Positions 4,038-29,857 of a stretch of DNA of 34,172 nucleotides are shown in pieces. The notes beneath the pieces were generated by a model. That model was not told where the DNA came from. It ran no database searches and was given only the letters and a program-made list of their open reading frames with translations. Made by a program: the position numbers and the translations under genes. How positions within the stretch are numbered: the first letter of the stretch is position 1; each line of letters opens with the position of its first letter. The DNA lies in IMG/VR virus record IMGVR_UViG_3300025120_000248, positions 1 to 34,172 of that record; one strand, written 5' to 3'. This stretch comes from a virus.

Positions 4038-4871
4038 ATGGCATACGAGAAAATTGGTAAGATAGCAAAGAGTGTAGGATCAGGCTTATTCAACAGAACA
4101 CTGGGTAGGCTTTTTGGATCTGGCATTTCTAATGGTAGCAGTCATATCAGACGAGCCACTGCTCGTTGGAGTGGTAGAGCTGATAAAAAAGACTGGCGTG
4201 TCAAACTCACGGTGCCAACAGCTAGTGCAGAACTGACCAAATTTTTTGATTTTGACAACAATCCGATCATGCAACCATTGGCAGGTGTTGGCGGTATATT
4301 TTGGCCATTGACACCTTCAATGGTGATACAGCATTCTGCAAACTACAATGCAATGGACATGACACACAGCAATTATCCACACCAGGCCTATCAGAATTCA
4401 CATGTGGACTCTTTAAACATTATTGGTGAATTTCCAGTACAGAATCAGGACGATGCCAAGCATTGGGTGGCCACTGTAAACTTTTTAAGGACTGCTACAA
4501 AAATGTTCTTTGGCAAAGACGATGATACAGGATTGAAAGGAAATCCACCACCAATTTTGCATTTGTCAGGATATGGTGATCACATGTACCAAAAGGTACC
4601 TGTCGTGTTGAACTCATTCAACGTTGAACTTAGATCCGGCATAGATTACATTTCAACAAAACAAGATTCACAACCGTTTCAAAGCCAAAGACCTAATCCA
4701 CATTTTGATGTCAACTCGTCAGACTCTCAAACTTGGGCACCAACACTGTCAAACATATCAGTACTAGTGACACCAATTTACTCTAGAGAAGACGTGAAAA
4801 ACTTCTCTATGAAAAAATTCGTACGTGGTGAGTTGAACGGCAAAGGCGACAACGAGATAGGATTTATTTAA
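4038..4871 (+). CDS. 48: Baseplate tail-tube cap protein, gp48-like
   Basis: Predicted to cap the central baseplate hub and nucleate the tail tube, as gp48 and gp54 do in T4. The 277-residue sequence carries motifs I associate with marine gp48: PSMVIQHSANYNAMD, THSNYPHQAYQNS, FLRTATKMFFG and KVPVVLNSFN. The N-terminal 50 residues are basic and glycine-rich. It is the first gene after the late promoter, with AAGGA at 4019-4023 before the ATG. Its stop overlaps the next start as TAATG, so it is coupled to gp53. T4 gp48 is longer (364), and gp54 is the alternative because the two T4 proteins are related. The tube-cap role is more certain than the exact number. Confidence 0.72.
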   Translation: MAYEKIGKIAKSVGSGLFNRTLGRLFGSGISNGSSHIRRATARWSGRADKKDWRVKLTVPTASAELTKFFDFDNNPIMQPLAGVGGIFWPLTPSMVIQHSANYNAMDMTHSNYPHQAYQNSHVDSLNIIGEFPVQNQDDAKHWVATVNFLRTATKMFFGKDDDTGLKGNPPPILHLSGYGDHMYQKVPVVLNSFNVELRSGIDYISTKQDSQPFQSQRPNPHFDVNSSDSQTWAPTLSNISVLVTPIYSREDVKNFSMKKFVRGELNGKGDNEIGFI

Positions 4872-5170
4872 TGGCTGAATACTCAAACACATCACCATAT
4901 GCAGAAACAGGTGAATTGGCAAACTATTTGGATGTACTGAATCCAAGAACCCTGACAGCCGAACAGGATGACCAAAGTTACACAATAGAGAGAACTTATG
5001 CATACAGACCAGACCTACTGGCTTATGACCTTTACGGCTCACCAAGACTGTGGTGGGTGTTTGTGCAACGTAATCCAGACCAACTGGAAGATCCAATATA
5101 CGATTTCAAACCCGGCGTGACCATACAGTTGCCCAAGAAAGAAAATCTTCTCAAAGACCTGGGGATTTAA
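4871..5170 (+). CDS. 53: Baseplate wedge protein, gp53-like (short)
   Basis: A 99-residue protein resembling the N-terminal part of T4 gp53 (196 residues), the wedge protein that joins wedges to the hub. Support comes from the YRPDLLAYDLYGSPRLWWVF segment at residues 45-64, comparable with T4 PEELANAIYGNPQLYWVL, followed by a LysM-like end (PGVTIQLP, 81-88). The short, single-domain form is usual in myoviruses with simpler baseplates. Translation is coupled to the tube-cap gene through TAATG at 4869-4873. The next gene starts 3 bases after its stop. Family similarity is clear in the YGSP motif; function is by homology. Confidence 0.78.
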   Translation: MAEYSNTSPYAETGELANYLDVLNPRTLTAEQDDQSYTIERTYAYRPDLLAYDLYGSPRLWWVFVQRNPDQLEDPIYDFKPGVTIQLPKKENLLKDLGI

Positions 5171-5173
5171 TCC

Positions 5174-7447
5174 ATGGTTAATTTAGTAGCAAAACACACT
5201 GCAGGTTACAATATTCACGTAGACGACAACAGGAAAACTTTCAAAGACAAAACATATGTGGCAGATGTTTCTGAACCAAATCAGCTCCATAAGTTTGCGT
5301 CATACAATGCATTGTTCACTCTTTCCGCATTGAGCAAATCGGATCTTGAAAACACAAAATTTATGGACGGAGCACCACATGACATAATTTTGAGGAGCTC
5401 TGGTATAGCAGACGGCAATCTTGCCAGCCATCTAGAAGGATCTGCTAGTGCCCAAGAAAAAATGAGAGATCCAAATTATAGAAAGACGTTAAGTGAGAAC
5501 GAAAGAATGTCGGCCACATTGGCCAAGTCTGCTAGGACCTTCAAGCGTGACAGAGATATGTATTTCCAGAGTGTGGAAATAAAAGCCCTACCAGGCCCGA
5601 ACGAAAAAAGAAGACTGACTTCGGTGGTACAGATGACCATGAACATCATAGAGCCAGCGGGCATAACACTATTTGAGAAACTACGTGCGGCGGCCTTCAA
5701 CAACGGATCTTTTGATCACATAGATCATCCTTTTCTTCTTACAGTTGAGTTTACAGGTTTTGATACAAATGGAAGGATAATGACAAGTAATGAAACAAAA
5801 AACATGAAGAGGCTTATACCTGTGAAACTTATCGACGTGCAGATGACAGTGAACCAAGGTGGAACCGAGTACTCGGTCAAGGCAATTCCTTACAATGAGT
5901 TTGGTTTCATGAACAGGTTTAATTATGTAAGGACGTCAGGGACACTAAAACCGAGGAACAGGAAACTAAACACAGTGTTTACAGCCCTTGAAAATTTGTT
6001 GAACGAACAGAATGAATCAGAAAAGACAACAGCAGGCGTGTCTATACCGGACATATACAAAATATCTATAGACAGCTCTTTCGATGCTGACAAGGTGGAA
6101 GTGGACAGCAAGAGCATAGAACAGGCAGGGATGACCAAGCAGACTGATGTTACAGGTGCAGATGCAGGATTTTATGGTCCTGACGACGATATACCAACAA
6201 TAGATGTCATGAAGGTCAATACTGGAAATGCTATATCTAAGATACTCGAGGACATAATGAAATCTCATCCACTGTTGACCGACGTGAATTTTGATAAATG
6301 GAAGTCCAAAGTGGCCTCTACACTTTTGGGAGTACAGCAGGTGTCAGGCTCTCAGGGCGTGTACAACAAAGCAACTGACAAAGAAAATCCAGACATGTAC
6401 TTTCCGTACTTCAAAGTTAAATCAGCGGTAACACCGCTTGATAGATACGATAATAAGAGACAGAAACATCAAAAACTTATACATTTTATTGTTGAACCCT
6501 ACGAAGTACATGCATACTCATTGGCCATACCGGGCGTCAGCACAGGCGACAATTTTAAAAAGTTTGTGTACAAAACATACAACTACATGTTCACAGGAGA
6601 AAACGTGGATGTGCTTGATTGCGCCATAGACTACAAGTACTCCTACTTCCAGAGCAGACTGAAAGATGTGGACGCATCTAACGACAGACAAAATTTTGTA
6701 GAAAAAAAATCTATCGAAAAACAACCTGGTATTGCGAACGAGCCTGATTTTGTTCACGACGGAGCATTCAAGCATTCATTTGAGCCAGGCATAGCGGCCA
6801 ATGAAAAAACAGGCCCAACCGGAGAAACATTCACTAGGGTTGACCAATTCATAGACGAGCTTACGCACCCACTAGCGGACATGGTAAACATAAGGTTAGA
6901 GATACTGGGAGACCCAGCATGGATCGGGCAGTCACAATTCATACCGCCGGTACCAAAAAAAGTTGGAGATGGTATAACACAAGACACAGACATCGTTTAC
7001 TGGAGAGGTGGCAAAAGGGAGGCAATATGGAATTCAAAACTTAAATGCTACAACACAGATCTAGCAGAACCAATAATAATGCTTAGATTCAAGATGCCAA
7101 CGGACGTGGACACAAAAAAAGGTGTGTACGAGATGGGAGTCACTGAACAGGCCATGTTCTCTGGATTGTACAGGGTCATATCTATGGAACATAATTTTGT
7201 TGATGGCAAATATACAAATATATTAGAACTTACAAGATTCAACAACCAGGGAGTTTACATTTCCGATCCAATTGAAGATTACCAAACAACAGATTTTAAG
7301 AGTAAAGTAACTGTTCCTTCTACTAAAGAAGAGATAAAAAATTTCAAAGATAATTTTATAGCAGGGGCTACAGAACGTGTAACTAATATAGGAAAGAATG
7401 TAGTAAAAGATCTTACCGCTGAGGCAAAGAAAATTTTTAGAGGATAA
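5174..7447 (+). CDS. Large baseplate hub protein, gp27-position (757 aa)
   Basis: Placed directly before the gp5-like spike gene, where a hub subunit that docks the spike is expected. Features resemble tube-fold hub proteins (gp27, Mu gp44, VgrG): a first barrel-like region with IIEPAGITLFEKL and HPFLLTVEFTGFD near residues 155-195, a second region around 560-690, and a C-terminal GLYRVISMEHNFVDGKYTN near residue 663. The last segment is typical of the final strand pair of such hubs. T4 gp27 has 391 residues, so this protein is nearly twice as long; the region of about 260-420 looks like an insertion of low similarity. The C-terminal 60 residues are lysine-rich and may be a tail entering the tube. 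The hub role is inferred from position and fold-like motifs, not from a clear gp27 match. Confidence 0.6.
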   Translation: MVNLVAKHTAGYNIHVDDNRKTFKDKTYVADVSEPNQLHKFASYNALFTLSALSKSDLENTKFMDGAPHDIILRSSGIADGNLASHLEGSASAQEKMRDPNYRKTLSENERMSATLAKSARTFKRDRDMYFQSVEIKALPGPNEKRRLTSVVQMTMNIIEPAGITLFEKLRAAAFNNGSFDHIDHPFLLTVEFTGFDTNGRIMTSNETKNMKRLIPVKLIDVQMTVNQGGTEYSVKAIPYNEFGFMNRFNYVRTSGTLKPRNRKLNTVFTALENLLNEQNESEKTTAGVSIPDIYKISIDSSFDADKVEVDSKSIEQAGMTKQTDVTGADAGFYGPDDDIPTIDVMKVNTGNAISKILEDIMKSHPLLTDVNFDKWKSKVASTLLGVQQVSGSQGVYNKATDKENPDMYFPYFKVKSAVTPLDRYDNKRQKHQKLIHFIVEPYEVHAYSLAIPGVSTGDNFKKFVYKTYNYMFTGENVDVLDCAIDYKYSYFQSRLKDVDASNDRQNFVEKKSIEKQPGIANEPDFVHDGAFKHSFEPGIAANEKTGPTGETFTRVDQFIDELTHPLADMVNIRLEILGDPAWIGQSQFIPPVPKKVGDGITQDTDIVYWRGGKREAIWNSKLKCYNTDLAEPIIMLRFKMPTDVDTKKGVYEMGVTEQAMFSGLYRVISMEHNFVDGKYTNILELTRFNNQGVYISDPIEDYQTTDFKSKVTVPSTKEEIKNFKDNFIAGATERVTNIGKNVVKDLTAEAKKIFRG

Positions 7448-7449
7448 CA

Positions 7450-9960
7450 ATGAGTCTACACAATTATTTAAAAGGTGATGCGTCAACGCCAAAAGCACCG
7501 GGCAAAGACAAGAGCTGGGCCTTAACCAATCCAGGCCCCTACATAGGTACTGTAAAAGGAAACACAGATCCTAGCAGGATGGGTAGGTTGAGTGTGTTGA
7601 TACCGTCATTAGCACAGACCGGCAACGGTACATCAGACCAATTGATCACATGCGAATATCTGTCACCATTTTACGGTGCCAAGGGAGTACGGCACAACAT
7701 TCCAGGATCGGTAGAATACGAACACTCACAACACTCTTATGGTTTTTGGGCAGTACCACCTGATTTAGAAACAAAAGTATTGGTAATATTTGCAGAAGGC
7801 AAAATGAACCAGGCCTTTTGGATAGGTTGTGTACAGGATCCTTACACCAATCACATGATACCGGGAGTGGCATCAAGCACAAGAACACACGACAGTCTTG
7901 ATGGAACATTTGAAGGAGCAGACGCAGGGTTCCAGCAAGACAAACAATCAACATATGGATCGTTGAATGTTCCTGCAGGAGAATTGAACAGGGTATCAGT
8001 GGGTGCTTTACAGAATAACAATTATAATTCTACACCAAAACCCATACACCCATTTGCTGACATACTAGTAAAACAGGGATTGGGGGCAGACGACATACGT
8101 GGTAATACATCAAGTTCTGCACGTAGAGAATCACCTAGCCAGGTATTTGGTATAAGCACACCGGGTCGTAAAAATACAGGCACAACGAAACAACAAGTAG
8201 GACCCAAGGATTCAGAACTCACAGATTACGTTGTAAGAACACCAGGACATACCTTCACAATGGACGATGGAGCAATAGATGGATCAAACCAACTGACAAG
8301 ATTGAGAACAGCATCTGGACACCAGTTGCTTATGCATGACACCGAAGGAGTCGTTTACCTAGCCAATGGTTCAGGTAATGCATGGATAGAAATGAATAGC
8401 GATGGCAAGATAGATATCTATTCAGGAGTGGGCGGAATAAACATGCGTACACAAGGTGACTTTAACTTACACAGTGACGCCAACATCAACATGCACGCCG
8501 CAGGATCTGTAAGGATAGGTGCTGAGACAGACATGATAAATTCAGCATCGGCAATCTTTAACCTAGGAGACAAAGGAATATTCAACAGCTCACAGTCAGG
8601 ATCCATAAGAGATTTCGCCAGGGATGGATTGACGTCATTTACACCAGGGACACAACTGCATGGAGCAGGTGGATCAATCCATCTTGCAGGTGCACAGGTA
8701 CACATGAACTCAACAGGTGCAAGTTCAACTTGGGGACCAGGATGGCTGACAACGGACAAGGTGGGAATGACACCACGTGAAGAGGGAGATGTTGAATTAA
8801 CTAAGAAAGGAATCGAACCATTACAATCTTTTACAAAGAAAACAAATACAACAGTACACAGGTTTGTAACACACGAACCAATGCCGAGATTTAAAGGATT
8901 TACATCAGATGGACATCTGCCTAGCTTTGATCCTACAGATGACCAAATGGACACAAAGCAGTGGTACAGACTTTCCAGTACACCAGGCACAGTGGAATAC
9001 ATGGAACAGCAAAACAGATTGTCTAAGGTAGAAAGTATCAGGTTAGGACAGTTCCAAGCTGACGCAGAAAAATATTTAAAAAGCAAAATGGGCAACTCCA
9101 CCAACGCTATCAAGGCAAAGCAGATAGTATCAAACTTTGGTGACAAGTATGACAAAACTTTCAATATAATAAATCAGGCCAAGGGAAATTTTAAAGATAT
9201 AGATAGTATATCCAACAAGTTAAAGAACTTCAACCTAAGCGACTCAGTTACAGATGTTAAGAACAACCTAACGACACAGCTGACCAACCAGGTGATAGAA
9301 AGCATATCAGGGAACAATGCAGTTCAGTTGTTCAAGGACAACGTGTTTGTCAACAATGCTGGCAAGTTGTTCTCACTGGGTGATAGTAAAACAGGAAACG
9401 TTTTAGATGAATTCGGCACAAGCGGAAATGTATATGGCACATCTCTAAACAACGTGCTGAAAAATGTACAAGGTATCACAGGAAATTTAAACATAGGAAG
9501 CCTAGGATCAGTGGCGAACGACGTAAGCACGATCACAAACGTGTACAAGAATGTGATGGCAGGCAACATTACAAATGTAACACAGATATCAAGTATCGCA
9601 AACAAAGCCGTTGGGTTTTTCAAATCGCAAAAAGGTGGACCTGCAAACATGTACACGTCTCCATCAGGATTCTCCACAGTAATGAAATCAGTTGGTGCAT
9701 TTAAAACCAAGGCCGTCACTGCAATAAGCAGTTTCTTCTCAGGATTTAAATTCAGTGACATCAGACTCAAGGAAGACGTGCAATTAGTTGGCAAGTCACC
9801 CTCGGGCATCAACATATATTCGTTTAAATACAAACACACTGATGGAACATACGAGGGCGTGATGGCACAGGAAGTTCCATGGGCAAGAAAGATGACAGAC
9901 ACAGGATACTACATGGTAGACTACAACAAAGTGGATGTTGAATTTAGGAGATTGAACTAA
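7450..9960 (+). CDS. 5: gp5-like baseplate hub/spike protein with C-terminal S74 chaperone domain, no lysozyme domain seen
   Basis: Central spike of the tail. Residues about 28-140 form the gp5/VgrG OB-fold (YIGTVKGNTDPSRMGRLSVLIP region, FWAVPPDLETKVLVIF, AFWIGCVQD). Residues about 260-375 are a gp5C/VgrG-like beta-helix region (HTFTMDDG, TASGHQLLMHD, VYLANGSGNAWIEM, then alternating INMRT, FNLHS, INMHA, VRIGA). T4 gp5 has a lysozyme domain between these; here residues 145-255 are a polar linker with no lysozyme motif. Residues about 535-760 are helical and glycine/asparagine-rich. The end (768-836) matches the peptidase S74 intramolecular chaperone: SDIRLK with Ser769 and Lys774 at the spacing of the known catalytic dyad, then IYSFKY and GVMAQEV. 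Autocleavage before Ser769 would release about 68 residues. It is coupled to gp25 by TAATG. Confidence 0.85.
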   Translation: MSLHNYLKGDASTPKAPGKDKSWALTNPGPYIGTVKGNTDPSRMGRLSVLIPSLAQTGNGTSDQLITCEYLSPFYGAKGVRHNIPGSVEYEHSQHSYGFWAVPPDLETKVLVIFAEGKMNQAFWIGCVQDPYTNHMIPGVASSTRTHDSLDGTFEGADAGFQQDKQSTYGSLNVPAGELNRVSVGALQNNNYNSTPKPIHPFADILVKQGLGADDIRGNTSSSARRESPSQVFGISTPGRKNTGTTKQQVGPKDSELTDYVVRTPGHTFTMDDGAIDGSNQLTRLRTASGHQLLMHDTEGVVYLANGSGNAWIEMNSDGKIDIYSGVGGINMRTQGDFNLHSDANINMHAAGSVRIGAETDMINSASAIFNLGDKGIFNSSQSGSIRDFARDGLTSFTPGTQLHGAGGSIHLAGAQVHMNSTGASSTWGPGWLTTDKVGMTPREEGDVELTKKGIEPLQSFTKKTNTTVHRFVTHEPMPRFKGFTSDGHLPSFDPTDDQMDTKQWYRLSSTPGTVEYMEQQNRLSKVESIRLGQFQADAEKYLKSKMGNSTNAIKAKQIVSNFGDKYDKTFNIINQAKGNFKDIDSISNKLKNFNLSDSVTDVKNNLTTQLTNQVIESISGNNAVQLFKDNVFVNNAGKLFSLGDSKTGNVLDEFGTSGNVYGTSLNNVLKNVQGITGNLNIGSLGSVANDVSTITNVYKNVMAGNITNVTQISSIANKAVGFFKSQKGGPANMYTSPSGFSTVMKSVGAFKTKAVTAISSFFSGFKFSDIRLKEDVQLVGKSPSGINIYSFKYKHTDGTYEGVMAQEVPWARKMTDTGYYMVDYNKVDVEFRRLN
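9751..9957 (+). other. Peptidase S74 (intramolecular chaperone) domain at the end of the gp5-like spike
   Basis: Covers residues 768-836 of the spike protein. The sequence SDIRLKEDV, followed by a strand pair with IYSFKY and GVMAQEV, is the S74 signature. In endosialidases and phage fibres this domain drives trimer folding and then cuts itself off before the Ser of SDxRLK. The domain is near the minimum S74 length, with only a short stretch after GVMAQEV. Confidence 0.8.
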
Positions 9961-10373
9961 TGGCATATGGAGATAATTCATCAGGATCTGATCCAAACAA
10001 CTCGATAACTTTCAAAGGTTTCAGTTCGAGAGCCAATCAAACAAGTTTCAAACTGTATGACTTTGAGGTTGCCAAACAAGATCTAATTAACAGATTGAGC
10101 ATACGTAAGGGCGAGCGAGTAGAAAATCCAGAATTTGGCACTATCATATATGATGCCATATTTGAACCGTTTACAGAGGCACTTAAAGATGCCATAGTTG
10201 AGGATGTCACAGCTAACCTAAATGCTGATCCACGTATAAGCACAGAAGAAATAATAGTTTCTGAAGCAGATAAGGGTATAGCCATACAGGCTACAATAAC
10301 GTATGTACCTCTCAATATCACAGAGAAATTGAGATTTAACTTCGATGAAAATTCGTTGTTACGCCTATCTTAA
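9960..10373 (+). CDS. 25: Baseplate wedge protein gp25
   Basis: A 137-residue member of the gp25/gpW-like family (T4 gp25 has 132), which with gp6 and gp53 forms the conserved wedge core and touches the sheath. Diagnostic stretches are the dLINRLSIRKGERVENPEFG region (residues 41-60), a YDAIFEPF motif, and the beta hairpin ending LRFNFD. The start codon overlaps the spike gene's stop (TAATG, 9958-9962), with AGGAG a few bases upstream. The family is widely conserved in contractile tails, so the call is secure. A late promoter follows within the 42-base gap before gp6. Confidence 0.93.
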   Translation: MAYGDNSSGSDPNNSITFKGFSSRANQTSFKLYDFEVAKQDLINRLSIRKGERVENPEFGTIIYDAIFEPFTEALKDAIVEDVTANLNADPRISTEEIIVSEADKGIAIQATITYVPLNITEKLRFNFDENSLLRLS

Positions 10374-13400: not shown

Positions 13401-13904
13401 CCAGTAAAATACAAAATACTATTTGGGTCAAATGCAGACGAAGAACTACAAGCAACATTTAAAGTTGTAAAAAACAAAAATACTAATGTTACAGATGCAG
13501 TAATTAAGACAAGAGTAATACAAGCTATAAATGAGTTCTTTGCACTGGACAACTGGGATTTTGGAGATGCATTTTATTTTACAGAATTAGCCGCTTACAT
13601 ACACAATCAACTTGCTCCAGATTTGCTTACAGCAGTTATTGTACCTAATCAATCAGGACAGACATTTGGGTCTCTGTTCCAGATCAATTCCGCGGCAGAC
13701 GAAATTTTTATCAGTGGGGCCACCGTTGATGATGTTTCGATTATTACAGCACTAGGAGCCAATCAATTGGCGGCTTCAGGTACAGTGGTAACGTCAACAT
13801 CAACTGCCACAACCAACACCACAACAGGATCAGCAGTGTCAGGCTCTACTACAACAGGTACCGGTTCAAGTTCAAGTTCCGGCAGTAGTGGATCAGGATA
13901 CTAA
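10416..13904 (+). CDS. 6: Baseplate wedge protein gp6, enlarged (1162 aa)
   Basis: Central wedge protein that dimerises into the ring around the hub. The N-terminal part (FKSYDFETLRRTMVAYLKE, then FVESSEYVALIDLIAYI, then ARENFLETAERRNSVLRLA, residues about 28-110) is the conserved gp6/gpJ-like baseplate core. T4 gp6 has 660 residues, so about 500 extra are present, mostly in the middle and C-terminal half. One insert holds an aspartate run FFDDDDDGVVDNPELFD near residue 814, resembling a calcium-binding DxDxDG loop. The C-terminal part (about 1030-1130) again looks like wedge core (KIRVIQAINEFF-like helix, TELAAYIHNQLAPDL). The last 40 residues are Ser/Thr/Gly low complexity ending SGSGY. Its stop overlaps the giant gene's start as TAATG. 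Confidence 0.88.
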   Translation: MATTDRQNRLLVAEDWRKIYQSFQQADFKSYDFETLRRTMVAYLKENYPDDFNDFVESSEYVALIDLIAYISQALSFRVDLNARENFLETAERRNSVLRLARLINYNAKRNLPATGLLKVNTISTTQDVLDSSGTNLSNSTIIWNDSANSNYREQFTAILNAANQTGQLFGNPRESAKIGGIDTEVYTLSSTQLDVPVFGFTKAIGGTNRKFEIVPSTINKSETIFESAPVPGTGLTYTYRSDGSGDSSNTTGFFFLFKQGTLESQTFSVDTAITNYVKSFSTSNINDTDVWLYKLDQFGQVSEEWTKIPSFTGNNAIYNSLAKSERNSFNVVTKVNDAIDLVFGDGNFSNLPLGDFRTYYRTSDNSKYAIQPADMQSVVLNLPYTDNNGALQTLTMTMGLRSSVYNSSATESNASIKEKAGQVYYSQNRMITAEDYQVVPLSASQEIVKVRSVNRSASGISRAKEILDPTGAYSNVNVFAEDGILYREESTQQFTFTFNDRGNIQSTIDTAVESKLKEAYARQFYYLKYTAKDLSNLSATWNSTTTSTNTNTGYFTSGGALVVGEYATSNFKFAKPGALVKFTSPDTREFFNNSLVTAGTDNAENRSWAKIGAVVLDGANAGVGNLEDGTGPVTLNNVIPNGAIVNSLIPAFTTSFSATLEADLINRIVEYEEFGLRYDQDSEEWKVITSTNLSSSSVFSTARQGDTSGTNLDASWWFKFANDGNTYTVTYRKLDYIFESEAQNKFHYDIEENIFDYKTGKSVKDTVKILKTNSIVSTGNSIGYTIPWQVVDTVTEADGFQDNRKVKVGFFDDDDDGVVDNPELFDIIVEPDTSATTKFVFFEKYISYDTIERFKPYAATNFLVSKNEADITLSAITYTDGQLFYFYDEEEDVIKKYSSTTNTLTTTTDYIARRGRSSMNFQYTHHAGQETRIDPSVSNIVDIYMLERTYDNLFRIWLQDGGTKPTESTSDQLRINYSGKLNPLKSLSDQIIFHPVKYKILFGSNADEELQATFKVVKNKNTNVTDAVIKTRVIQAINEFFALDNWDFGDAFYFTELAAYIHNQLAPDLLTAVIVPNQSGQTFGSLFQINSAADEIFISGATVDDVSIITALGANQLAASGTVVTSTSTATTNTTTGSAVSGSTTTGTGSSSSSGSSGSGY

Positions 13905-16900
13905 TGGCAGATAACACAACAAACTCACTAACAAATAACGAAGTTGTCAAACAGGGCAACAACGAGTACAGACGAACTGTACAGCACCTCCCTGCGTTTT
14001 ACAGAACAGATTCTAACCAAAGATTTCTATCAAGCACACTTGATCCTTTGGTGCAGAAAGGTGCACTGGAGAGATTAGATGGATTTATAGGAAGACAAGA
14101 TTCCTATACCAGAGATGTTAAAGATAGATATCTAACTGCAACAAACAGAGACAGGATGGCGTATCAGTTGGAACCTGCTGTCACATATACCGACAAAGAC
14201 ACAACTTCGGTAAATCCAGAAGACCAGGTCAAATTTACGGGCACATATGATGATTACATAAATCAAATAAAATATTTTGGCGGAAAGATTGATAATCATG
14301 ATCGACTAAACAAAGAAACTGTATACAGTTGGAACCCGGCCATAGATTACGACAAGCTAATAAATTACAGAGAATACTACTGGATACCGGAAGGTGTAAA
14401 TGCAATAGAAATTGATTCGGTGGGTCCATCGGCAGTGGCAGAGTACAAAGTTGAAGTATCAAAGGACGACGGTAGTTCGGCAAAGGCCTACGTTTTCCCA
14501 CACAGAGAAAATGAAACGAATCCTATTATAAAACTGTACAGGGGAAATACATACAAATTTAACGTAGACGCTCAAGGTCATCCTTTCTATATCATGACTG
14601 AACCATACAAAAGCATGGTGGCGGAAGATGGATCGTCATCTACATTGTGGACGACTGGAGTTACAAACAATGGTGCTGATCAAGGCACAGTAACCTTCAC
14701 AGTTCCAACTACAGGCACTATACCAAACACTTTATATTATCAATGCGGAAACCATGATGCCATGTACGGTATCTTACAAATCAGAGATGTTACAACTCTA
14801 GCAAACATAAATCCAGAAGATGAAATAATAGGGGTAAAAAATTACAGCCTTAGAACAGTAGATTTGTCTAATGGCATGAAAATAAAATTTACTACAGACA
14901 AACTTACTTCAGGTTCATCTTACAAAACAAAAGAATATTATGTTGAAGGAGTTGGAGACTCAATCACATTGACAGATGTTGAAGATTTGATAGCACCAGG
15001 CAGTTACTCAAAAGAAAGCACAATCGCTTATGACTCTGTTGCTTATGATACTAGACCTTACGCAAAATCATTCTTTACTCCTGTAGCCCAGGATTATATT
15101 ACAATTAAAAGAGATTCCAGAGACCAAAATGCATGGTCAAGGTATAATAGATGGTTTCATAGATCAATTATTGAAGAGACTGGAAGAATAAACGGATACA
15201 CTCCATCGCTAGACGAAGGTGATAGAGCAAAGAGACCAATTATAGAATTTGATTCAGGACTTGCACTTTACAATCACGGTACAGTTGCAAAAAAATCAGT
15301 TACACTGTTTGACACTGTCACGAAAGATGCCTTTAGCACCATAAGTCAACAAACTGGTTACATAGTTGACGGACTGGCACTTGCAGACGGAATGAGAATT
15401 ATATTTGCGGGCGATACAGACCCAATTGTAAAGAATAGGATATACAAAATTAATTTTGCAACAGCAGGCGATAGCACACAGGTTATATCGCTTACTCCAG
15501 AAGACGACAGTGTACCAGCCGACAAGGACAGCATTTTCATAGAATTTGGAACTGTCAACACAGGTAAAACTTTCTATTATGATAGTGCTACTACAAGTTG
15601 GGTAGAAGCACAACAGAAAACAAAGGTTAATCAACAACCATTATTTGGTATGTGGGACAACACACATACAAGTTTTGATGATGCGACTGTATATCCTGGT
15701 TCAACGTTTGCAGGAGCAAAAGTTTTCGAATTTGCAACTTCAGATACAGCAATTAAAGACACTGTGTTAGGCATAAAAGTAAAATACAATACAATCAACA
15801 ATATTGGTGATATTGTTTTTGATTCAGATCATACTTCTGGAACATTTACATACAAAGTTGGCGCAAAAACAATTACTAAAAATTTAGCAGAAGGACATTT
15901 ACATTACACAACTAGCAGAGAAAGACACAACTCTAGAAGTGCTTGGGTAAAAAGAACAATTGACAGCAAACAGAGAGTAATAAGAACTGTAATTGTAGAT
16001 AAAACAGAAAAGAAACTTTTTCCAATAGACGTCTATAAAAATTCAGCCTCATTAACAGACTTAGAAGTTTCGGTGTCTGTCAACGGTAAAAGAAAGACAC
16101 TTACAACAGATTATCTACTGGTAAATGGTGCAACTAACAAATATGTTAAGTTTGTAAAAGATTTAGCAGAAAATGATCAAATTAGAATTGCAAGTTACAG
16201 CAGTGCTGACAAAATACAAAACAAAGGCATTTACGAAATGCCTGATAATTTGTCCCATAATGGTCTTAACCAACAACTAGGAACATTTACGTACGGACAG
16301 ATACTAGGACATGTCCGAGATATTTTAGATAGAAATCAGGATGTTACAGGAACAATACCTGGAGTTTGTAACCTAAGGGACAAGGCAAATGCAAGATTAA
16401 AAGGCGGAAGCATACAGCAACACGAAAGTTCATTACTACCAGCAGTATTTGGCTTAATAGACCAGGAAGCCAATGTAATGACCTCAATCGACTATGTAAA
16501 TTTAGAATACGAAAAATGGTACAACGCATTCCTAACACATGCGATGGGAACAGCATATGAAGGCATAGCCGCAGATAGAGTTGACGAGATAATCACTGCT
16601 ATCACACTTGGTAGAAAAAGTTCTTTTCCTTTCTACTACGAGGACATGGTGGGATGGGGAGAAAATGTTTCAACTAGAACTTATACAGTACAAGGCAGTT
16701 TGCAAACAGAGTACGCTTTAGACTCACAACATGATATTACAACAACAAGTAACAGGGCAGTTTATGTTTTCCTAAATGATGTGCAATTAATTTTAGGAAG
16801 TGATTACACTTTCAGCACATTAGATGATAGTGTAAACATTACAGCTACACTTGCCGCAGGTGACATCATAAAAATTAAAGATTATGCAGACACAACTGGC

Positions 16901-19900
16901 AGTTACATGCCACCGTCTCCAACTAAACTTGGAATGTATCCAAAATTTAAACCAGAATCTTTTACTGACACAACTTATATCACAGACACAGTAGTGATTA
17001 GAAAGCACGACGGATCAATTATAAAAGCATACGGAGATGAGAGAGACGACCTAATACTAGAACTTGAAAAAAGAATTTACAACAACTGCAAAGTTGCTTA
17101 CGACTCAACGTTGTTGGATTTAAATGACGTGATGCCAAGTGCATTTACTTCAACAGAATACGCATTACAGGAAGTGAATGACGTTATGGGCTCAGATTTT
17201 TATATATGGGCAGGCCGTAATAATGTGCAGTACATAAACAATTTAACATTTTCAGAAGGTTCACCTTTTACATACAATTATGGAAGAAGCACAGACAGAT
17301 TAAATGGTCATAGCCTTCCAGGATACTGGAGAGGAATTTACAATTACTTTTATGACACAGATGCTCCACACTTGAGACCATGGGAGATGCTAGGACATTC
17401 AGAGAAACCAACTAATTGGGAAACACTTTATGGCCCAGCACCTTATACATCAGCGAATGATGTGCTTTGGACTGCTATTGAAACTGAGCCAGGCAGATAT
17501 GGTAAGCCAGAAATAAAAAGTTACCTACCAGTCGATGCATCAGGAAATTTATTAGATCCATTAGCGGCAGGCCTTGTAGACAATTTTGACATACCGGGAA
17601 GACAAGCTTCTTGGAAGTTTGGAGATCGTGCACCAGCGGAAACGGCATGGAGAAGATCAAGTGCATACCCTTTCACAGCAATGAAAACATTGGCACTTAC
17701 CAAACCGGCCAAATTCTTTTCAGATTTTTTAGATAATTCTCGACTTACAACAAACATAAGTGGAAACAGAATATACAAAGATACAGGCGTCAGACAACAA
17801 CTGTCTACTAGCAAGTATCATCTAGAAATATCAACTGATAATGATACAGGAATTACAACAAGGTATCAGACAGCAGGGTATCAACCATTCGTTGTCAATT
17901 ATTTGATTTCACGTAATTTAGATCCAACTGTATTTTATATCAACAAGATGAAAAATTTATCTGTGCAGTTAGCATATAAACTAGGTGGATTTACAGACAA
18001 GGACAATTTAAAAGTATTGACAGATTCTGTATCTCCGGGTTCAACATCAGGCAGTAAATTTATACCAGACGAAAACTATAAAATATTATTTAGAACATCA
18101 AATCCTGTTGAAAGTTTTCAATATTCAGGTGTGTTGATAGAAAAAAATACAGATACTGGTACTGATGGTTCCACACTGTTGGGAGGATACAAAGTATTAG
18201 GATATTCAACAACAAAACCATTTTTTAAATTCAACTATCCTGTTAAGACAACTACACATAGTCCGGTATCGGTAGCTGATTCGGTGGTTGTCAAGAGATA
18301 CACTGCATTTAGAGAGTTTACTCAAGCAATACCTTATGGACATGTTTTTGATACCATACAAGATGTGGCAGATTTCCTTTTTGGATACGGCCATTGGCTA
18401 GAAGAACAAGGATTCAAGTTCAATAAATTTTCAAATGAACTAAAAGAAACACTTAATTGGTCCAACGCAGTGAGAGAATTCTTGTTCTGGACCACACAAG
18501 AATGGGCTCCGGGTAGTGCTGTTACAGTTTCTCCGGCCGCAGACGGTTTTGAATTAGACACCGACAATTCGATTGTTGGCAGATTGAGAAATCTTGCAGG
18601 AGACTACTCTCTATTAGATGCAGGCGGAAGGAAGATAGACATTAGAGAACTGTCAACAAAACGTATAGGCAAAACATTTGAGTTAGGGGTAAAATCAGAT
18701 AATGGTTTATACAATGTTGCATTGAACACAGTACAGAAAGAGCACGTGCTATTATTTGATAACAGCACAGCCTTTGCAGATATTATATTTGATCCATATA
18801 CAGGCTTCAGACAACAGCGATTGAAATTAGTTGGATGGAAAACATCAGGATGGAACGGAGATTATTACGCACCAGGATTTGTTTTTGATGCCGCCGAAGT
18901 AACTTACTGGTTACCAAGCACTGATTACAATATTGGCGATTCCGTTGAATATCAAGGAAGATTCTATGTTGCAAAATTAAATCACAATTCAGAAACCACT
19001 TTTGAAAATAAAAACTGGATATTAAAAGATAAGAAACCAGCACCACAACTTATTCCAAATTTTGAATACAAAATTTCACAATTTAATGATTTTTATAATT
19101 TAGAAACAAATAATTTTGATGAGTCACAACAGCAATTAGCCCAAAGGTTAATTGGATACCAATCAAGGGATTATTTAGAAAATCTTTTTGTAAACGATGT
19201 TTCTCAATACAAATTTTACCAAGGATATATTCGAGAAAAAGGAACACAAAATGCAATAGATCAAATTTTAAAAGCACAATACGAAGGAGAAGATATCGAT
19301 CTTGAGTTATATCCAGAATGGATGATCAGGACAGGGAGATTTGGAAACACAGATGCTACCGAAAGCATACAAGTTTTGCTTAAAGATAATGAGGTATCTG
19401 GTAATCCACAAAGTATTGAACTGTTTGATACAACAAACGAAACCAGAGAGTTTTATAGATCATTGTATGTTGGTGCATCTGCACTTTATAAAAAACCTGT
19501 AGAGTACTCAGCTAAAAATACTTTTGGCAGACTAGATTATACAAAAGCAGGGATGGACAGAGACTATGCACAGGTGTACAAGACAGCAGGGTATCCGAGA
19601 ACAACTCAAGTACAGCACACAGCTTTTAATATTACAGATTTACTAAATCTTGATGTAAACAGTATATCGGCAAATGATCTAATATGGGTGGCAAACAAAA
19701 GCAACAAAGATTGGGACGTTGTTAGAATGACTAATGCCAAAATAAAAATAGCTGAACTTAGAACAATGAATGGTACTACACAGTTAGAAATAACTTTTAC
19801 AGGGTCACATGGATTACTAGCACAAACACCAACTTCACTTGCTGATTATTTTGCAATCGCAAACAGCGAAGAGCCAACACTGAACGGAGTATACCAGGTG

Positions 19901-22900
19901 TCAAGCGTTTCAGATCACAAGACTGTCATAGTAGATTATACAGGAAACACAGCATTTATTCCAAATTTGGAAGACGGCTCAACTGCAGATACTTACGGAA
20001 ACATTTACAAATTTATATCAGTAAGATTAAATTCTATGGACAACGTCAATGATTTGATCAACTATGCTGATTACAACGATAAAGCGGATTCAATATCAAA
20101 ACCTGGAGACAAGGTTTATGCAGATACCGACAGTTCGGGACTATGGCAGGTATATGAGAAACAAGATCCTTACGTAGCAAAAATTCAAAAATCAACAGAT
20201 ATTGTAACATCAGATCAAAATTTTGGACATAGGATAGTTGCACGTAACGACGGTAGAACTATTGTTGTGTCTGCACCAGGCAAAGGACAAGGTGAAGTTC
20301 ACTTCTTATTCCGTTCAAGCACGGAAGCAGGTGCAGTCTTAAATGCTCAGTCAGTACAGACTATGACAGAAAATGATGATGCAACAAGTAGATTAGGTGA
20401 ATCACTATCAATGAGTACAGACGAGAACTTTGTAGTTGCTGGTGCACCATATACCAATGCAATAAGTTCAGATGGTAGCACAAGATTCAGCGACAACGGG
20501 CTTATAAAAATTTACGTTTGGGAGCCAACAACATTTAGTTACAATGTACTCAACACAATCACACCTCCTTTAGATGGTTCAACATCTGATTCGTCACAAG
20601 CACAGAACTTTGGATGGTCTCATAAGATTTCAGAACCAGGAGCAAGTTCGGCAAGAGCAACACCAGTGAAGTATCTTTTTGTAGGTGCTCCTGGATATGG
20701 ATCAGATACAGGACAGGTTTACATGTATGAATGGGGAATAGGTGCAGACTTATCAACATATGATACATGGACAAACTGCCTAACTTTAACATCAGCTGAT
20801 CCAGGACAAGGCAAAAGATTTGGGCATAGATTAGAAGCTAACGATACGGGGGATATACTTGCAGTAAGTTCACTTGCACCCGGCCAAGCAGGAAAAGTTG
20901 AAATTTACGTGAGAACTTCACAAGCAAATGACGACAGTACACAACATTCGTTTAGTCTTGCACAGACATTGACAGGTAGTAGTGCTGACGGATCAACACT
21001 TAACACAGGGTTTGGTGATGCGTTAACTATGACACACGATGGGGGTGTGCTAATAGTTGGTGCTCCAGGAGTTGACGGAACAGATACTGACACAGGTGCA
21101 GTATATTATTACAAATGGAATGCTGACGGATCAACAAACACATACACATTACAGCAAACAATAAATGGCCCAGACTCAAAATCTAACATGAAATTTGGCA
21201 CAAGTCTTGACATAAGCGACAATGGAGCTAGATTAGTAATAGGTTCCGAACAGGCATCCACACCTAGAGAAATGAAAGTTGACTCAGGTGCAACAACATT
21301 TGATTTACAAGACACAACAATAAGTGATTTAAATGTAGGTTCAGGTGCGGCATTCACTGCAACTATGTACAATACTCACTTTGTAATAGATGACAAATTA
21401 GTAACCGACAGCGTTTCGCCTAACGATGATTTTGGAAAAGGCGTTTGTATCATTGACAACTCCGTTATAGTTGGTGCACCACAAGATGAAGGTAACACTG
21501 GCTTACTCAATGACGGAACAGCAGGAGTATTTGATTTATCAGCAGATGGAGAATATGCATGGAAAAATATAGCATCTGAAACAGCACTAATGGATACAAA
21601 CAAACTTGGACAGGTATTTGATTTTAATAACAAAACAAAACAAGTTCGAGATTACTATGACTTGCATGATCCAGTCAAAGGCAGAATATTGGGAGTAGCT
21701 GATAGAGAAATAAACATCAAGACTACGTGGGATCCGGCAGTGTACAACATAGGGCCAAATGCAGATGTTAAGATTCCATGGGGAATAGAACACGTAGGCG
21801 AAGTATGGTGGAATCTATCAGCAGTGAAATGGACATGGTACGAGCAAGGTGATCAAGAATTTAAAACAAACAACTGGGGCAAACTTTTCCCAGGCTCAAG
21901 TATAGACATATATGAGTGGACAGAATCAAGACTGTTACCGAGTCAATGGAATACTTTACTTACAACAGCAGAAGGTAATACTTTAGGTTTATCAGGCACA
22001 CCTTTACACGCAGATGATTCGCAGTACACAGTAATTCAGAAATACAATTCAAGATTAGACACGCTTGTAGATTACTATTACTATTGGGTAAAAAATAAAG
22101 CAACAATGCCAACAAATAGTGTTGTAGAAAGAAAGAATACAACTGCATATGTGGCGAATGTAATTGCTAACCCGGAAAAATCTGGATTGAAGTATTATTC
22201 TGTAACAAGTCCTAACAGTTTGATACTGAATAATATAAGGAACTTGTCTCAGGACGATATTGTTTTAAATGTTGACATTAGGACCAATACATTTGATGGA
22301 GATTCACACGCGGTATGGAAGTTGGCAAAAGAAGGTGACAAAGATTATAGACCAGGACATCAGATTGAAACACGTTGGTGGGATTCACTAGTTGGACAAA
22401 ATGCTTCAGGTGATAAGGTTCCCGACATTGAATTGCCTATAAACGAAAGATATGGAAATAACATAAGACCGAGACAGAGTTGGTACGTAGATAGATTTGC
22501 GGCACTGAAAGAATTAATAGATTATGCAAACTCCGTCTTGATTAAACGGCAACTGGCAGGACAGATTAATCTTGCTAATCTGGATTCAAAAGATCCAGAA
22601 CCAACAAGTCAGAGTCTAGAGTGGGATACAAGCGTCGAAACATACGCAGACCTTACGTACATAAACACAGGTGATATTTCCGGATCAGTCAAGTATCTAG
22701 TAAAAGCAGATGAGACATCTAACGGATACTGGGCAATATATACCTGGGACGGCACAGAATTCACTAGAACAAAATTACAAACTTACAACACTTCTCCGTA
22801 TTGGAATTATGTAGATTGGTATGGCACCGATCCTGATGTACATCTAATGAATCACAGTGCAAATACTCCAATAGACAAGCAAGTAACATATGAGTACGAA

Positions 22901-25900
22901 CTAGACCAATTGAATTTGGAAGTAGGAAAACATGTGAAAGTTACAAATGCAGATACAGGTGGCTGGAAATTATTCATGCAGACTGCGTCAGGTTTTGTAA
23001 ATGTTGGAACGGAGAATGGAACAATTAGGTTGTCTACTAAACTTTATGATTACACACAAGATGCTACAGGATTTGCTGGAGATGACACATTCGATGATAA
23101 CTTCTTTGACCAAGAACCTGCAATAGAAACAAGGAAAATTTTAACAGCATTACGAGACGATTTATTTGTTGGCGATTTAGCATTAGAATACAACACACTT
23201 TTCTTTACAGGATTGAGAAGAGTGCTGTCTGAACAAACATATGTTGACTGGATGTTTAAAACATCCTTTATCAATGCTAAAAACTCTGTCAGAGCATTAG
23301 ATCAAAGAAAGACTTACACATTAGGTACAGATGATTGGATAGAAAGTTATATCAATGAGGTGAAACCTTTTCACACAAAATTGAGAGAATACAAATTAGG
23401 AAATACAGCATTAGATACACAGGACGGATTATTTACAGACTTTGACAGCCCGGCATTCTATGATGTGTCTATCGGAAAAATAAGACCATTTGATGTTGAC
23501 AGGGACAGTGGCAAACTAACAGAATATCCATGGCAGATGTGGAATGACTATCACAAGAAATATGTTTCTTCAATAACTGTTAGCAAATCAGGTTCTGGGT
23601 ACACTAAAATTCCAACAGTAACAATACTTGGAGGCACGACAGGATCAACAGGCCCATTCCAAATTCAGGCAACAAGCTCGAGTGGTGCATCGTCAGGCAG
23701 TTACGGCTATTACTACCCGTTGTTCACTAGTGAAGATCAGGCAAAGATTTGGGATTCGCAGAATGGTGGATCCGGTGTGGCACACTCTCACACATTCGAT
23801 GGGTACGCAGGAACGTTCTACATGCCAACAAGTCAAATTTCTAATCATGCACTGGCAGATAAATCCGGAACATACAAAATGTATGTCACACCTAGCACAA
23901 CAGCGGCAATTGCCACTGCAAAAGTATCTAACGGTAAGGTGACAGCGATCACGGTAACAGGTCTTGGTGCAAATTACACTTCAACACCTAAGGTGGCAAT
24001 CACAGGCGGTGCAGATGATGGATCGACACCAAGTGATACTGCAATAGCATATGCAAATTTAAAAAATGATCTTGTAAGAGATCTAGACACGACAATAAAA
24101 TTTGATAGGGTATCAAGCACGTCAAGTGTTGTTGATTGGACAGCATCTACTAGCTATGCATACGGACAACTTATTAGATACAACAATGAATTGTACAGGG
24201 CAACCAGTGCCTTTACATCAACAACAGACTTTGATGATGGAGAAAACGATCTTTACAAGTTCCGGGGCGATGAAGTAGGACTGACAGCCGCGGATAGAAC
24301 AAAAGGTTTCTATGCACCAGTGTCAGGCATGCCAGGAAATGAACTTTCGCAGGTTATGTCAGGAGTTGACTACGGTGGCACAATGGTGACAGGATTACTG
24401 TTTGATCAGAACCAAGGATGGGATAGATCTAAATGGTATGATTTTCCTTGGGATTCGTACGGTGTATCAAGAGTGAAAGCGTTTAGCTCCGACGGCCTTA
24501 CAGCTACATTTACAATCACACCTGCACCGGCTATCACAGAAGTGTACATGGTATATGTAACATCTGATGACAGCACTAGGAAAAAACGAAGCGAAATTTT
24601 TAGAGGTGATGGTTCAACAACAGCGTTCACACTAACTTCTATTCCAGATGCAGGAGCATTAGTAGAATTTATACCTTTCGATGACGACGGAGTGTTAACT
24701 CCAACAGATGATAGAACCCTTGACTCGATAGTCAAAGGTGGCCTATTTGGGTCTGCAATAGGAACAGCACCAAGCGATATATTGTTGGAAGGTGACGATT
24801 TCTTATCTCCAGCCACTAGCTATGCTCCAGAAGAAACAGTACCAGGGCAACTATTTGACACATTAGACATCAAAGTTTACACATCTCCAGAATCAGGTGT
24901 GCCATTTGTATCTAGCAAGAATCATAGAGGTGACGGAACGACACTGACGTTCAGTATAGGCGACTATCCAGGAACATTAGGTTCTGTGACGGTTTCAGTA
25001 AACGGTGTGACTCAAAAAGTTTCACTAGATGGGTCAACTGCTGGAGACTATTCGGTTGATATTGCAGGCAAAACAATTACTTTTCTAAGTACAGCACCAG
25101 CGGTCAACAGCGTGGTGGCAACAAAAGTTTTTGCGATAAGTGGTGAGAATTATAGAGTGCTTGACCAGTATACCGGTGATGGAAGTACAGTTACATTTAC
25201 AACAGGAATAAGAGATGATTTCAGTCCTATATTCACAAGGACTACTTCTGAAATATACATTACCATCGATGGTGTGCCAACAACAGCATACGCAACCACA
25301 ACTACTGCAGGTTCATTTACAGTTACATTCAACACGGCACCGACAGCAGATGCATTTGTACAGATTGCAGGATTTAACAGATCAGGATTAAGTTCTCGAA
25401 GTCATGCCAGTGTTAGAAATGAAAAAATTACATATGATGGATCAACAAATAGATATACGTTGACTTATCCGCCAGGATCAGTTGGACCATTCTCAGCCTT
25501 AACAATTATAGAAGTAAATGGAAAAGTACTCAGAGGACCTGACATTAGTTACTTCCAGGGAGACGACAGCACGTACAGTTACCAAGCACACCAGCACACT
25601 GATTTCTTTACAACGGATCAAACTAATATCACAGTTGACTCATCAACAACGACAGCAGATGCATTTATATTTGTAGATCGTGGAGAAGATTCAACAATAG
25701 ATCCACCTAAAACTATTACAAGTGCAGACCAAGTACAGCTTCATGTCAATGGAGTGTTGCAGTTGAGAAACACTGACTACTACCTAAACATAGGCGAGGG
25801 AACAGAGACAGCAGACGTCACTACTACAAAGGCAGACTCTAACACGATAACAGCTGACACGGAATCAGTCACTAACAGTGTGAGATTAGACGTACCAGCA

Positions 25901-28924: not shown

Positions 28925-29857
28925 ATGACGGTTAGAACACCCCTATACTGGAACGGAGACCAGATGCAGGAGATGAAGTCTACACAACTGACCGAACAAT
29001 ATAATCTTGGAATATATTATTACAGTTTACAACCATCAGTAGCTTTATCGGTATCTGGTTCAGGCGGAAATCTTACATCTATAGACGATACAAGATTACA
29101 AGCTGGAGCGGCATCTACGGCATCAGGTTCTTTTCCAAGCGAGGCAACGACAGCAGAGCCAAGTGTTGTGACAACATCATACCAAAGGATCACACAAACT
29201 CTTAATTCGGTCACACCAACATCAGACACAGGTGTAACGTTTCCGGTTTACTGGAACGGCACTCAGGTACAAGCAATGACACAGGCAGATTTTTTAGATA
29301 CTTTCGTTATACCAGCAATAAATTTAATGGCATTGGGAGATATCACTGTATCGCAGGGTGGCACATATCACGTGTCAACGTCGACCACAGTCACTGGATC
29401 TGCATTAGTATCAAGTACACCAATTTTCTCAGACACAAGAGCAGATACATCATTGTACTCGGCTGGAAGCATACCTGAATCGCAAGATCAACCTACAACA
29501 GTAACTAATTACTACCTACACAAAATAGAAGGAGACTCAGGCGAGCCATCAGTCATTGCAACTTTTCTTGATAGCAATAACGATATGAAACAGTTTTCGT
29601 CAGCATCATTGGGCGGATTAATGGCAGAATATATTCAGCAACAGGTGGTGTCGTCATCCACAGGATACACTCTACGTTATAACGTGGATGGCAGTGGCAA
29701 CACTAGGGGTACCGCAATGGTAAACACAATACTAACTGGAGGCAGTGGTAACTATCAACAGCTTTTTGCCAGCGGAAACGATTACAGAGCACAGGAGTTC
29801 CCAGATGGTTCACCAAGTACAGCAAACACATATAACTTTAAGATACTGAAAGCATAG
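28925..29857 (+). CDS. Conserved virion structural protein (310 aa)
   Basis: Begins TVRTPLYWNGDQMQEM and resembles a virion protein family conserved in cyanophages, including the stretch SVSGSGGNLTSIDDTRLQAG (residues 42-61) and PSEATTAEPS (71-80). A tandem internal motif is clear: PLYWNGDQMQEM near residue 6 and PVYWNGTQVQAM near residue 107, suggesting two related domains. The composition is Ser/Thr/Gly-rich and beta-like, with no catalytic motif. The AGGAG ribosome-binding site lies within the end of the preceding gene, and the start is only 3 bases after that gene's stop. Its function in the virion is unknown; a baseplate-periphery or neck location is equally possible. Confidence 0.72.
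   Translation: MTVRTPLYWNGDQMQEMKSTQLTEQYNLGIYYYSLQPSVALSVSGSGGNLTSIDDTRLQAGAASTASGSFPSEATTAEPSVVTTSYQRITQTLNSVTPTSDTGVTFPVYWNGTQVQAMTQADFLDTFVIPAINLMALGDITVSQGGTYHVSTSTTVTGSALVSSTPIFSDTRADTSLYSAGSIPESQDQPTTVTNYYLHKIEGDSGEPSVIATFLDSNNDMKQFSSASLGGLMAEYIQQQVVSSSTGYTLRYNVDGSGNTRGTAMVNTILTGGSGNYQQLFASGNDYRAQEFPDGSPSTANTYNFKILKA

What the first reader, a model, noticed from the sequence alone, without database searches (positions are those of the whole stretch)
7450..9960. Baseplate spike lacks a visible lysozyme and ends in a self-cleaving S74 chaperone
T4 gp5 has a lysozyme between its OB-fold and beta-helix; here that position is a polar linker. The C-terminus carries an S74 domain with SDIRLK (Ser769/Lys774), which is typical of fibres and not of hub proteins. 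A spike that folds with an intramolecular chaperone and loses it by autocleavage would be a different maturation route from T4 gp5, which is cut beside its lysozyme.
Basis: partly seen in the sequence, partly recalled or inferred. Interest (0 to 1): 0.6.

Follow-up and report, generated by a model that had tools for sequence, protein, structure and literature searches.

The report
Phage spike with self-cutting end cap
The cell-puncturing spike of a marine virus of bacteria has no built-in wall-cutting enzyme and instead ends in a sticky, acid-free tail capped by a small domain that probably cuts itself off, an arrangement that unrelated short-tailed phages also use on the proteins they inject.

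Summary
ORF 7450-9960 (836 aa) is a T4-gp5/VgrG-type central spike: OB fold, polar linker, beta-helix, then a ~280-aa extension and a C-terminal S74 core with Ser769/Arg772/Lys774. No lysozyme was found in the linker. That absence is shared with every jumbo-phage relative examined, which carry either no enzyme, a lysozyme or a trypsin-like protease at the C-terminus.

The interpretation needs correcting. The S74 here is a minimal form: 68 aa, without the trimerising coiled coil or the hairpin arms of known chaperones. It sits ~330 aa beyond the beta-helix. Its nearest isolate relatives are not fibres but podophage ejection proteins.

New evidence for removal: the Ser/Arg/Lys motif is invariant in all S74 spikes found. 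S74 is gained or lost repeatedly. S74-less spikes stop within a few residues of Ser769, so their encoded product resembles a cleaved one. The 40 aa before Ser769 are almost free of acidic residues; podophage ejection proteins show the same design.

Best explanation: self-cleavage at Phe768|Ser769 releases a cap from a membrane-active spike tail. Cleavage is inferred, not shown. New variant of a known kind.

The parts
7450..9960 (+). central spike gene (gp5/VgrG type), 836 aa plus stop
   Evidence: PHROG 13211; profile match to VgrG 8gra
7534..7839 (+). OB-fold domain, aa 29-130
   Evidence: PF04717; beta strands 30-129 in a low-confidence model
7840..8235 (+). polar linker, aa 131-262, no lysozyme
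   Evidence: no family hit; aligns to lysozyme-free linkers of jumbo-phage relatives, shared RGxxSSxARRExPSQVxG motif
8236..8769 (+). spike beta-helix, aa about 263-440
   Evidence: DUF2345 weak hit; VgrG 8gra profile match at profile positions 278-420
8920..9633 (+). C-terminal extension, aa 491-728, helical in prediction, function unknown
   Evidence: helices 500-619 in a low-confidence model; fast-evolving from aa 640 (pN/pS 0.60)
9634..9753 (+). acid-free, glycine-rich, cationic tail, aa 729-768; predicted mature C-terminus ...SFFSGFKF
   Evidence: D+E mean 0.21 per 40 aa against 4.08 background
9754..9957 (+). minimal S74 domain, aa 769-836
   Evidence: PF13884; profile match to 3gud, 6f45, 7dc3; model pLDDT about 90 over the domain
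9754..9756 (+). predicted nucleophile Ser769; predicted cut just before it
   Evidence: 36/36 invariant; invariant also across podophage S74s
9763..9765 (+). Arg772, predicted oxyanion residue
   Evidence: 36/36 in spikes; replaced in some podophage S74s
9769..9771 (+). Lys774, predicted general base
   Evidence: 36/36 invariant, AAG and AAA 18:18
4871..5170 (+). gp53-like baseplate wedge (context)
   Evidence: PF11246, phrog_7145
5174..7447 (+). virion structural protein upstream of the spike (context; hub position)
   Evidence: phrog_11190
9960..10373 (+). gp25-like baseplate wedge (context)
   Evidence: PF04965

Best explanation
The protein is the trimeric central spike of a marine contractile-tailed phage related to the jumbo-phage groups of PA5oct, 121Q and Atu_ph07. 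After its beta-helix it carries a ~280-aa extension ending in a ~40-aa cationic, acid-free, glycine-rich tail, followed by a minimal S74 domain. Most likely, once the spike trimer has formed through its own beta-helix, Ser769 activated by Lys774 attacks the Phe768-Ser769 bond and the 68-aa cap leaves, exposing the tail as the mature C-terminus. The tail then works at the spike tip, most plausibly by inserting into the inner membrane when the tube is driven in. The S74 is thus a removable cap or assembly checkpoint for a membrane-active end, not mainly a beta-helix folding chaperone. Shown: domain order, invariant motif, constraint, repeated presence/absence with stops at or near the predicted cut. 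Inferred: the cleavage itself, its timing, trimer dependence, and the membrane role of the tail.
For: Motif Ser/Asp/Arg/Leu/Lys invariant in 36/36 distinct spikes and kept in 70/70 further loci found without using it. S74 is the most constrained part (pN/pS 0.17) while the part before it is the least (0.60). On a tree of the core, S74 presence needs 8 changes, at least 6 forced by well-supported branches, and all C-terminal types together 10. S74-less relatives stop near the Ser position: L057 2 residues before, L075 1 before, L079 4 before, L073 2 past by alignment, and end in the same FF-x-F type motif. No S74 remnant follows the stop where it was read, and none is found elsewhere in the S74-less records, which are fragments. 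40 aa before Ser: D+E 0.21 against 4.08 background, 87% with none against 4.4%. The same layout recurs in 27 podophage ejection-type proteins (22/27 without acid in the 25 aa before Ser, background 9.6%), and their S74-less versions (L169, L179, L183) also end about there. Self-cleavage just before this Ser is established for S74 domains of T5 pb1, MYRF and Bdellovibrio Bd3182.
Against: Known S74 domains need a C-terminal triple coiled coil to trimerise and cut (MYRF: PMC8326128, PMC3742443); this one lacks it. Foldseek found no solved S74 structure for the domain model, and the profile link to solved S74 domains is weak (E 0.0045). Stops at the domain edge could reflect plain domain swapping at a boundary. 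Three other S74-less spikes (L072, L077, L080) are too divergent for a firm end alignment. No mass-spectrometry data.
Confidence: 0.55

Rival explanations
1. The minimal S74 does not cut. It stays as a folded tip or trimer clamp at the end of the spike, and its conserved Ser and Lys are structural.
For: No coiled coil, which known S74 domains need for cutting; the domain is compact in prediction on its own.
Against: Ser and Lys are the two motif residues that stay invariant even in podophage S74s where Arg changes; S74-less relatives lack any replacement tip; Ser769 and Lys774 are the catalytic pair of the family.
Confidence: 0.22
2. One reading: S74 is a true intramolecular chaperone needed to fold the spike beta-helix, then removed.
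For: S74 domains of endosialidase, T5 pb1 and others act so; the spike is a beta-helix trimer.
Against: The beta-helix lies ~330 aa upstream; the folding arms and coiled coil are missing; close relatives fold the same core without any S74.
Confidence: 0.12
3. S74 is removed only during infection, as the trigger that frees the tail at the host membrane.
For: The nearest isolate relatives sit on podophage ejection-type proteins.
Against: Known S74 domains cut once folded and trimeric, during assembly; S74-less relatives need no trigger.
Confidence: 0.08

Closest known systems
Phage T4 gp5 central spike / tail lysozyme
   Same: OB fold plus triple beta-helix, same gene neighbourhood (gp53, gp25, gp6), proteolytic maturation likely
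   Different: no lysozyme; long C-terminal extension; predicted cut at the far C-terminus instead of Ser351/Ala352 beside the lysozyme (PMC3004832)
Jumbo-phage spikes of RaK2/121Q/CBB, PA5oct and Atu_ph07/Phosso
   Same: homologous OB, lysozyme-free linker and beta-helix (29-35% identity)
   Different: 121Q and Vibrio 2.275 end in a GH24 lysozyme, Atu_ph07 in a trypsin-like peptidase (Phosso has a similar GMAGGPVLD-type end), PA5oct and SCTP-2 stop after the beta-helix; the RaK2 and CBB lysozyme is published
Canonical S74 intramolecular chaperones (K1F endosialidase, T5 pb1, GA-1 gp12, MYRF)
   Same: SDxRxK catalytic motif and core
   Different: no C-terminal coiled coil, no beta-hairpin arms, not next to a beta-helix
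S74-bearing podophage ejection-type proteins (Microcystis Mwe-JY13, Sulfitobacter pCB2047-C, Vibrio PVA1 neighbourhood)
   Same: nearest S74 among isolates (up to 46% identity), equally short, preceded by an acid-free glycine-rich segment, S74-less versions exist
   Different: the rest of the protein is not detectably related to the spike extension
Evolved VgrG spikes of type VI secretion
   Same: spike with swappable C-terminal modules (family knowledge)
   Different: here a self-cutting cap rather than an effector

Membership tests
Peptidase_S74 (PF13884) core | profile score above the curated cut-off | tested here: met
   22.4 bits against 22; 24.8 alone; 59 of 60 members of the S74 alignment match
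Peptidase_S74 (PF13884) core | Ser-Lys dyad with Arg (SDxRxK) | tested here: met
   36/36 spikes; Ser and Lys invariant in a 60-row alignment with podophage S74s
Peptidase_S74 (PF13884) core | self-cleavage just before the Ser | not testable with these tools
   needs expression or virion mass spectrometry; indirect support only
[quoted passage not shown]
   only 68 aa from Ser to the end in all loci; GA-1 3gud matches only over its first 69 of 129 residues
Canonical trimeric S74 chaperone | beta-hairpin arms that embrace the substrate | tested here: not met
   no insertion of that length; described in PMC4690869
Canonical trimeric S74 chaperone | directly follows a beta-helix or stalk | tested here: not met
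   ~330 aa separate beta-helix and S74; an acid-free tail precedes it
T4 gp5-type spike | OB fold and triple beta-helix | tested here: met
   PF04717 marginal; VgrG profile hit 2.3e-5; PHROG 13211
T4 gp5-type spike | lysozyme domain between them | tested here: not met
T4 gp5-type spike | baseplate gene neighbourhood | tested here: met
   gp53, gp25, gp6
Podophage ejection protein | homology outside the S74 domain | tested here: not met
   profile of aa 491-768 finds none of 1127 ORFs; shared S74 and layout only

The most novel reading that the evidence does not exclude
A minimal, coiled-coil-free S74 is a mobile self-removing cap for membrane-active C-terminal tails, used alike on the puncturing spike of contractile phages and on the injected proteins of podophages, so that S74 has a second role distinct from fibre chaperoning.
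Probability: 0.35. Interest if true: 0.72.

Novelty: new variant of a known kind. Interest (0 to 1): 0.52.

Why it matters
If the cap comes off, this spike is matured by itself and carries a membrane-active end instead of a wall-cutting enzyme, which would change how such phages are thought to cross the inner membrane. It would show that S74 can cut without its coiled coil and that contractile and short-tailed phages share an accessory module for protein injection. It also corrects database names: several proteins labelled 'tail lysozyme' in this spike family have no recognisable lysozyme.

Tried and rejected
AF2 of the full-length monomer was poor (pLDDT 45.7), so it was not used for fold searches. 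Fold search of the S74 model against PDB gave nothing significant (best Foldseek E 0.88; VIA Z 3.7 or less, kinase N-lobes), although the library of viral predictions gave S74/ICA proteins. Single-sequence search of the C-terminus against PDB found only chance hits. A lysozyme elsewhere: no GH24 in 13, no SLT or M23 in 18 related records of 31-122 kb, no 121Q-type lysozyme among 7068 ORFs of the marine loci, no recognised cell-wall enzyme among the window proteins scanned; all are fragments, so a distant tail lysozyme is not excluded. A GH24 motif regex found nothing in the linker but also failed on the genuine 121Q lysozyme, so it carries no weight. A separate S74 gene acting in trans in S74-less phages: none found. 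Homology of the extension to podophage ejection proteins: none detected. Literature searches for a minimal S74 on spikes or ejection proteins found no description in the papers listed.

Full report
Observation. The ORF at 7450-9960 encodes 836 aa. It is the central spike: OB fold (PF04717, marginal), PHROG 13211 over aa 31-360, a weak DUF2345 hit, profile similarity of the beta-helix to T6SS VgrG 8gra (E 2.3e-5), and neighbours gp53, gp25 and gp6. PF13884 Peptidase_S74 starts exactly at Ser769.

Lysozyme. Nothing in aa 145-255 resembles a lysozyme. The segment aligns to the linkers of PA5oct, Atu_ph07, Phosso, SCTP-2, 121Q and Vibrio phage 2.275, including RGxxSSxARRExPSQVxG-type residues, and none of these has a lysozyme there. 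The empty position is therefore a property of the wider spike family, not a loss in this phage. In that family the C-terminus varies: GH24 lysozyme in 121Q and Vibrio 2.275, trypsin-like peptidase in Atu_ph07 (Pfam 6e-17; a similar end in Phosso), nothing in PA5oct and SCTP-2. The C-terminal lysozyme was reported for RaK2 and CBB (PMC3622015, PMC5259590).

The S74 module. 80 viral loci encode relatives; a second search with the S74 alone gave 80 top loci, all on spikes or on fragments consistent with spikes. Ser, Asp, Arg, Leu and Lys of SDxRLK are invariant in 36 distinct aligned spikes and the motif is present in all 70 new loci, retrieved with patterns that do not contain it. Lys uses AAG and AAA equally, so conservation is at the protein level; Ser uses AGT/AGC only. 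S74 has the lowest pN/pS of the protein (0.17), the 130 aa before it the highest (0.60).

It is a minimal S74. From Ser to the end are 68 residues in every locus. GA-1 gp12 (3gud) matches over its first 69 of 129 residues. The C-terminal coiled coil that MYRF needs for trimerisation and cleavage (PMC8326128, PMC3742443) and the hairpin arms of T5 pb1 (PMC4690869) are absent. It lies ~330 aa beyond the beta-helix. A folding role for the beta-helix is therefore doubtful; trimerisation would have to come from the spike itself (inference).

Turnover at or near the predicted cut. On a tree of aa 27-440, S74 presence needs 8 changes (at least 6 forced by starred branches) and all C-terminal types 10. 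The tree is a quick one with long outgroup branches. In S74-less relatives that keep the extension, the ORF stops near the Ser position: L057 2 residues before, L075 1 before, L079 4 before, L073 2 past by alignment; three others are too divergent to align there but end in FFRF or FKFF. Whether gained or lost, the encoded ends of S74-less spikes resemble what cleavage before Ser769 would leave. Domain swapping at a natural boundary explains this too, so it supports but does not prove cleavage.

The tail. The 40 aa before Ser769 contain on average 0.21 acidic residues against 4.08 for 40-mers over the rest of the protein; 87% of 39 distinct sequences contain none, against 4.4% of background 40-mers; mean net charge +2.6. 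L057, L064/L079 and L073 share this; the 595-611-aa forms have some acids but the same aromatic end. Acid-free, glycine-rich and cationic is what a membrane-active tail looks like, but hydrophobicity is moderate (best 19-aa Kyte-Doolittle mean mostly 0.5-1.5), below a classical transmembrane helix.

Ejection proteins. The nearest S74s among phage isolates are on the first of a run of three genes in podophages, annotated 'DNA transfer protein', 'DNA injection protein' or 'internal virion protein D', with neighbours such as 'released from the phage upon host infection'. Across 27 such proteins 22 have no acidic residue in the 25 aa before the Ser (background 9.6%), and S74-less versions (L169, L179, L183) end about where S74 would begin. 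Their S74 is similarly short. Some have Arg replaced (SDENAK in L193-L195, SSPEAK in L198) while Ser and Lys stay. The spike extension itself is not detectably homologous to them. These annotations are depositors' names, not tested functions.

Verdict. Best reading: a self-removing cap on a membrane-active spike tail (0.55 overall; the cleavage step is better supported than the membrane step). Rivals: permanent tip (0.22), true beta-helix chaperone (0.12), cut only during infection (0.08). New variant of a known kind; interesting chiefly because it joins two injection systems through one small module and makes a testable claim about S74 without a coiled coil.

Noticed in passing
L002:11914-15048 (Phosso) and L004:11905-14502 (Atu_ph07): Central spikes whose C-terminus resembles a trypsin-like peptidase (PF13365 E 6e-17 in Atu_ph07), although the Atu_ph07 record calls it tail lysozyme.
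   Followed up: partly
L048:4711-7734 and just downstream: Spike whose core is nearly the same as L036, but with a different, fibre-like C-terminus instead of S74; the next gene carries an HGTHVAS stretch like a subtilisin-type protease.
   Followed up: no
window 13904-26959: 4351-aa virion protein (phrog_10938) with chitin-binding-type CBM_5_12 modules and an FG-GAP repeat.
   Followed up: no
window 28925-29857: 310-aa protein with a faint trypsin-like signal (Peptidase_S7, E 0.018, below cut-off).
   Followed up: no
records W01-W06, G001-G005, G008, G014-G017: PAAR spike caps are found in PA5oct, SCTP-2, Atu_ph07 and Phosso, but not in 121Q, Vibrio 2.275 or the marine S74 contigs (which are fragments).
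   Followed up: partly
L193-L195 and L198: Podophage S74s with the predicted oxyanion Arg replaced (SDENAK, SSPEAK) but Ser and Lys kept; natural variants for testing the mechanism.
   Followed up: no
L006:7938-10589: Vibrio phage 2.275 spike has a weak M23 peptidase match (E 0.001, below cut-off) ahead of its C-terminal lysozyme, as noted for CBB.
   Followed up: no
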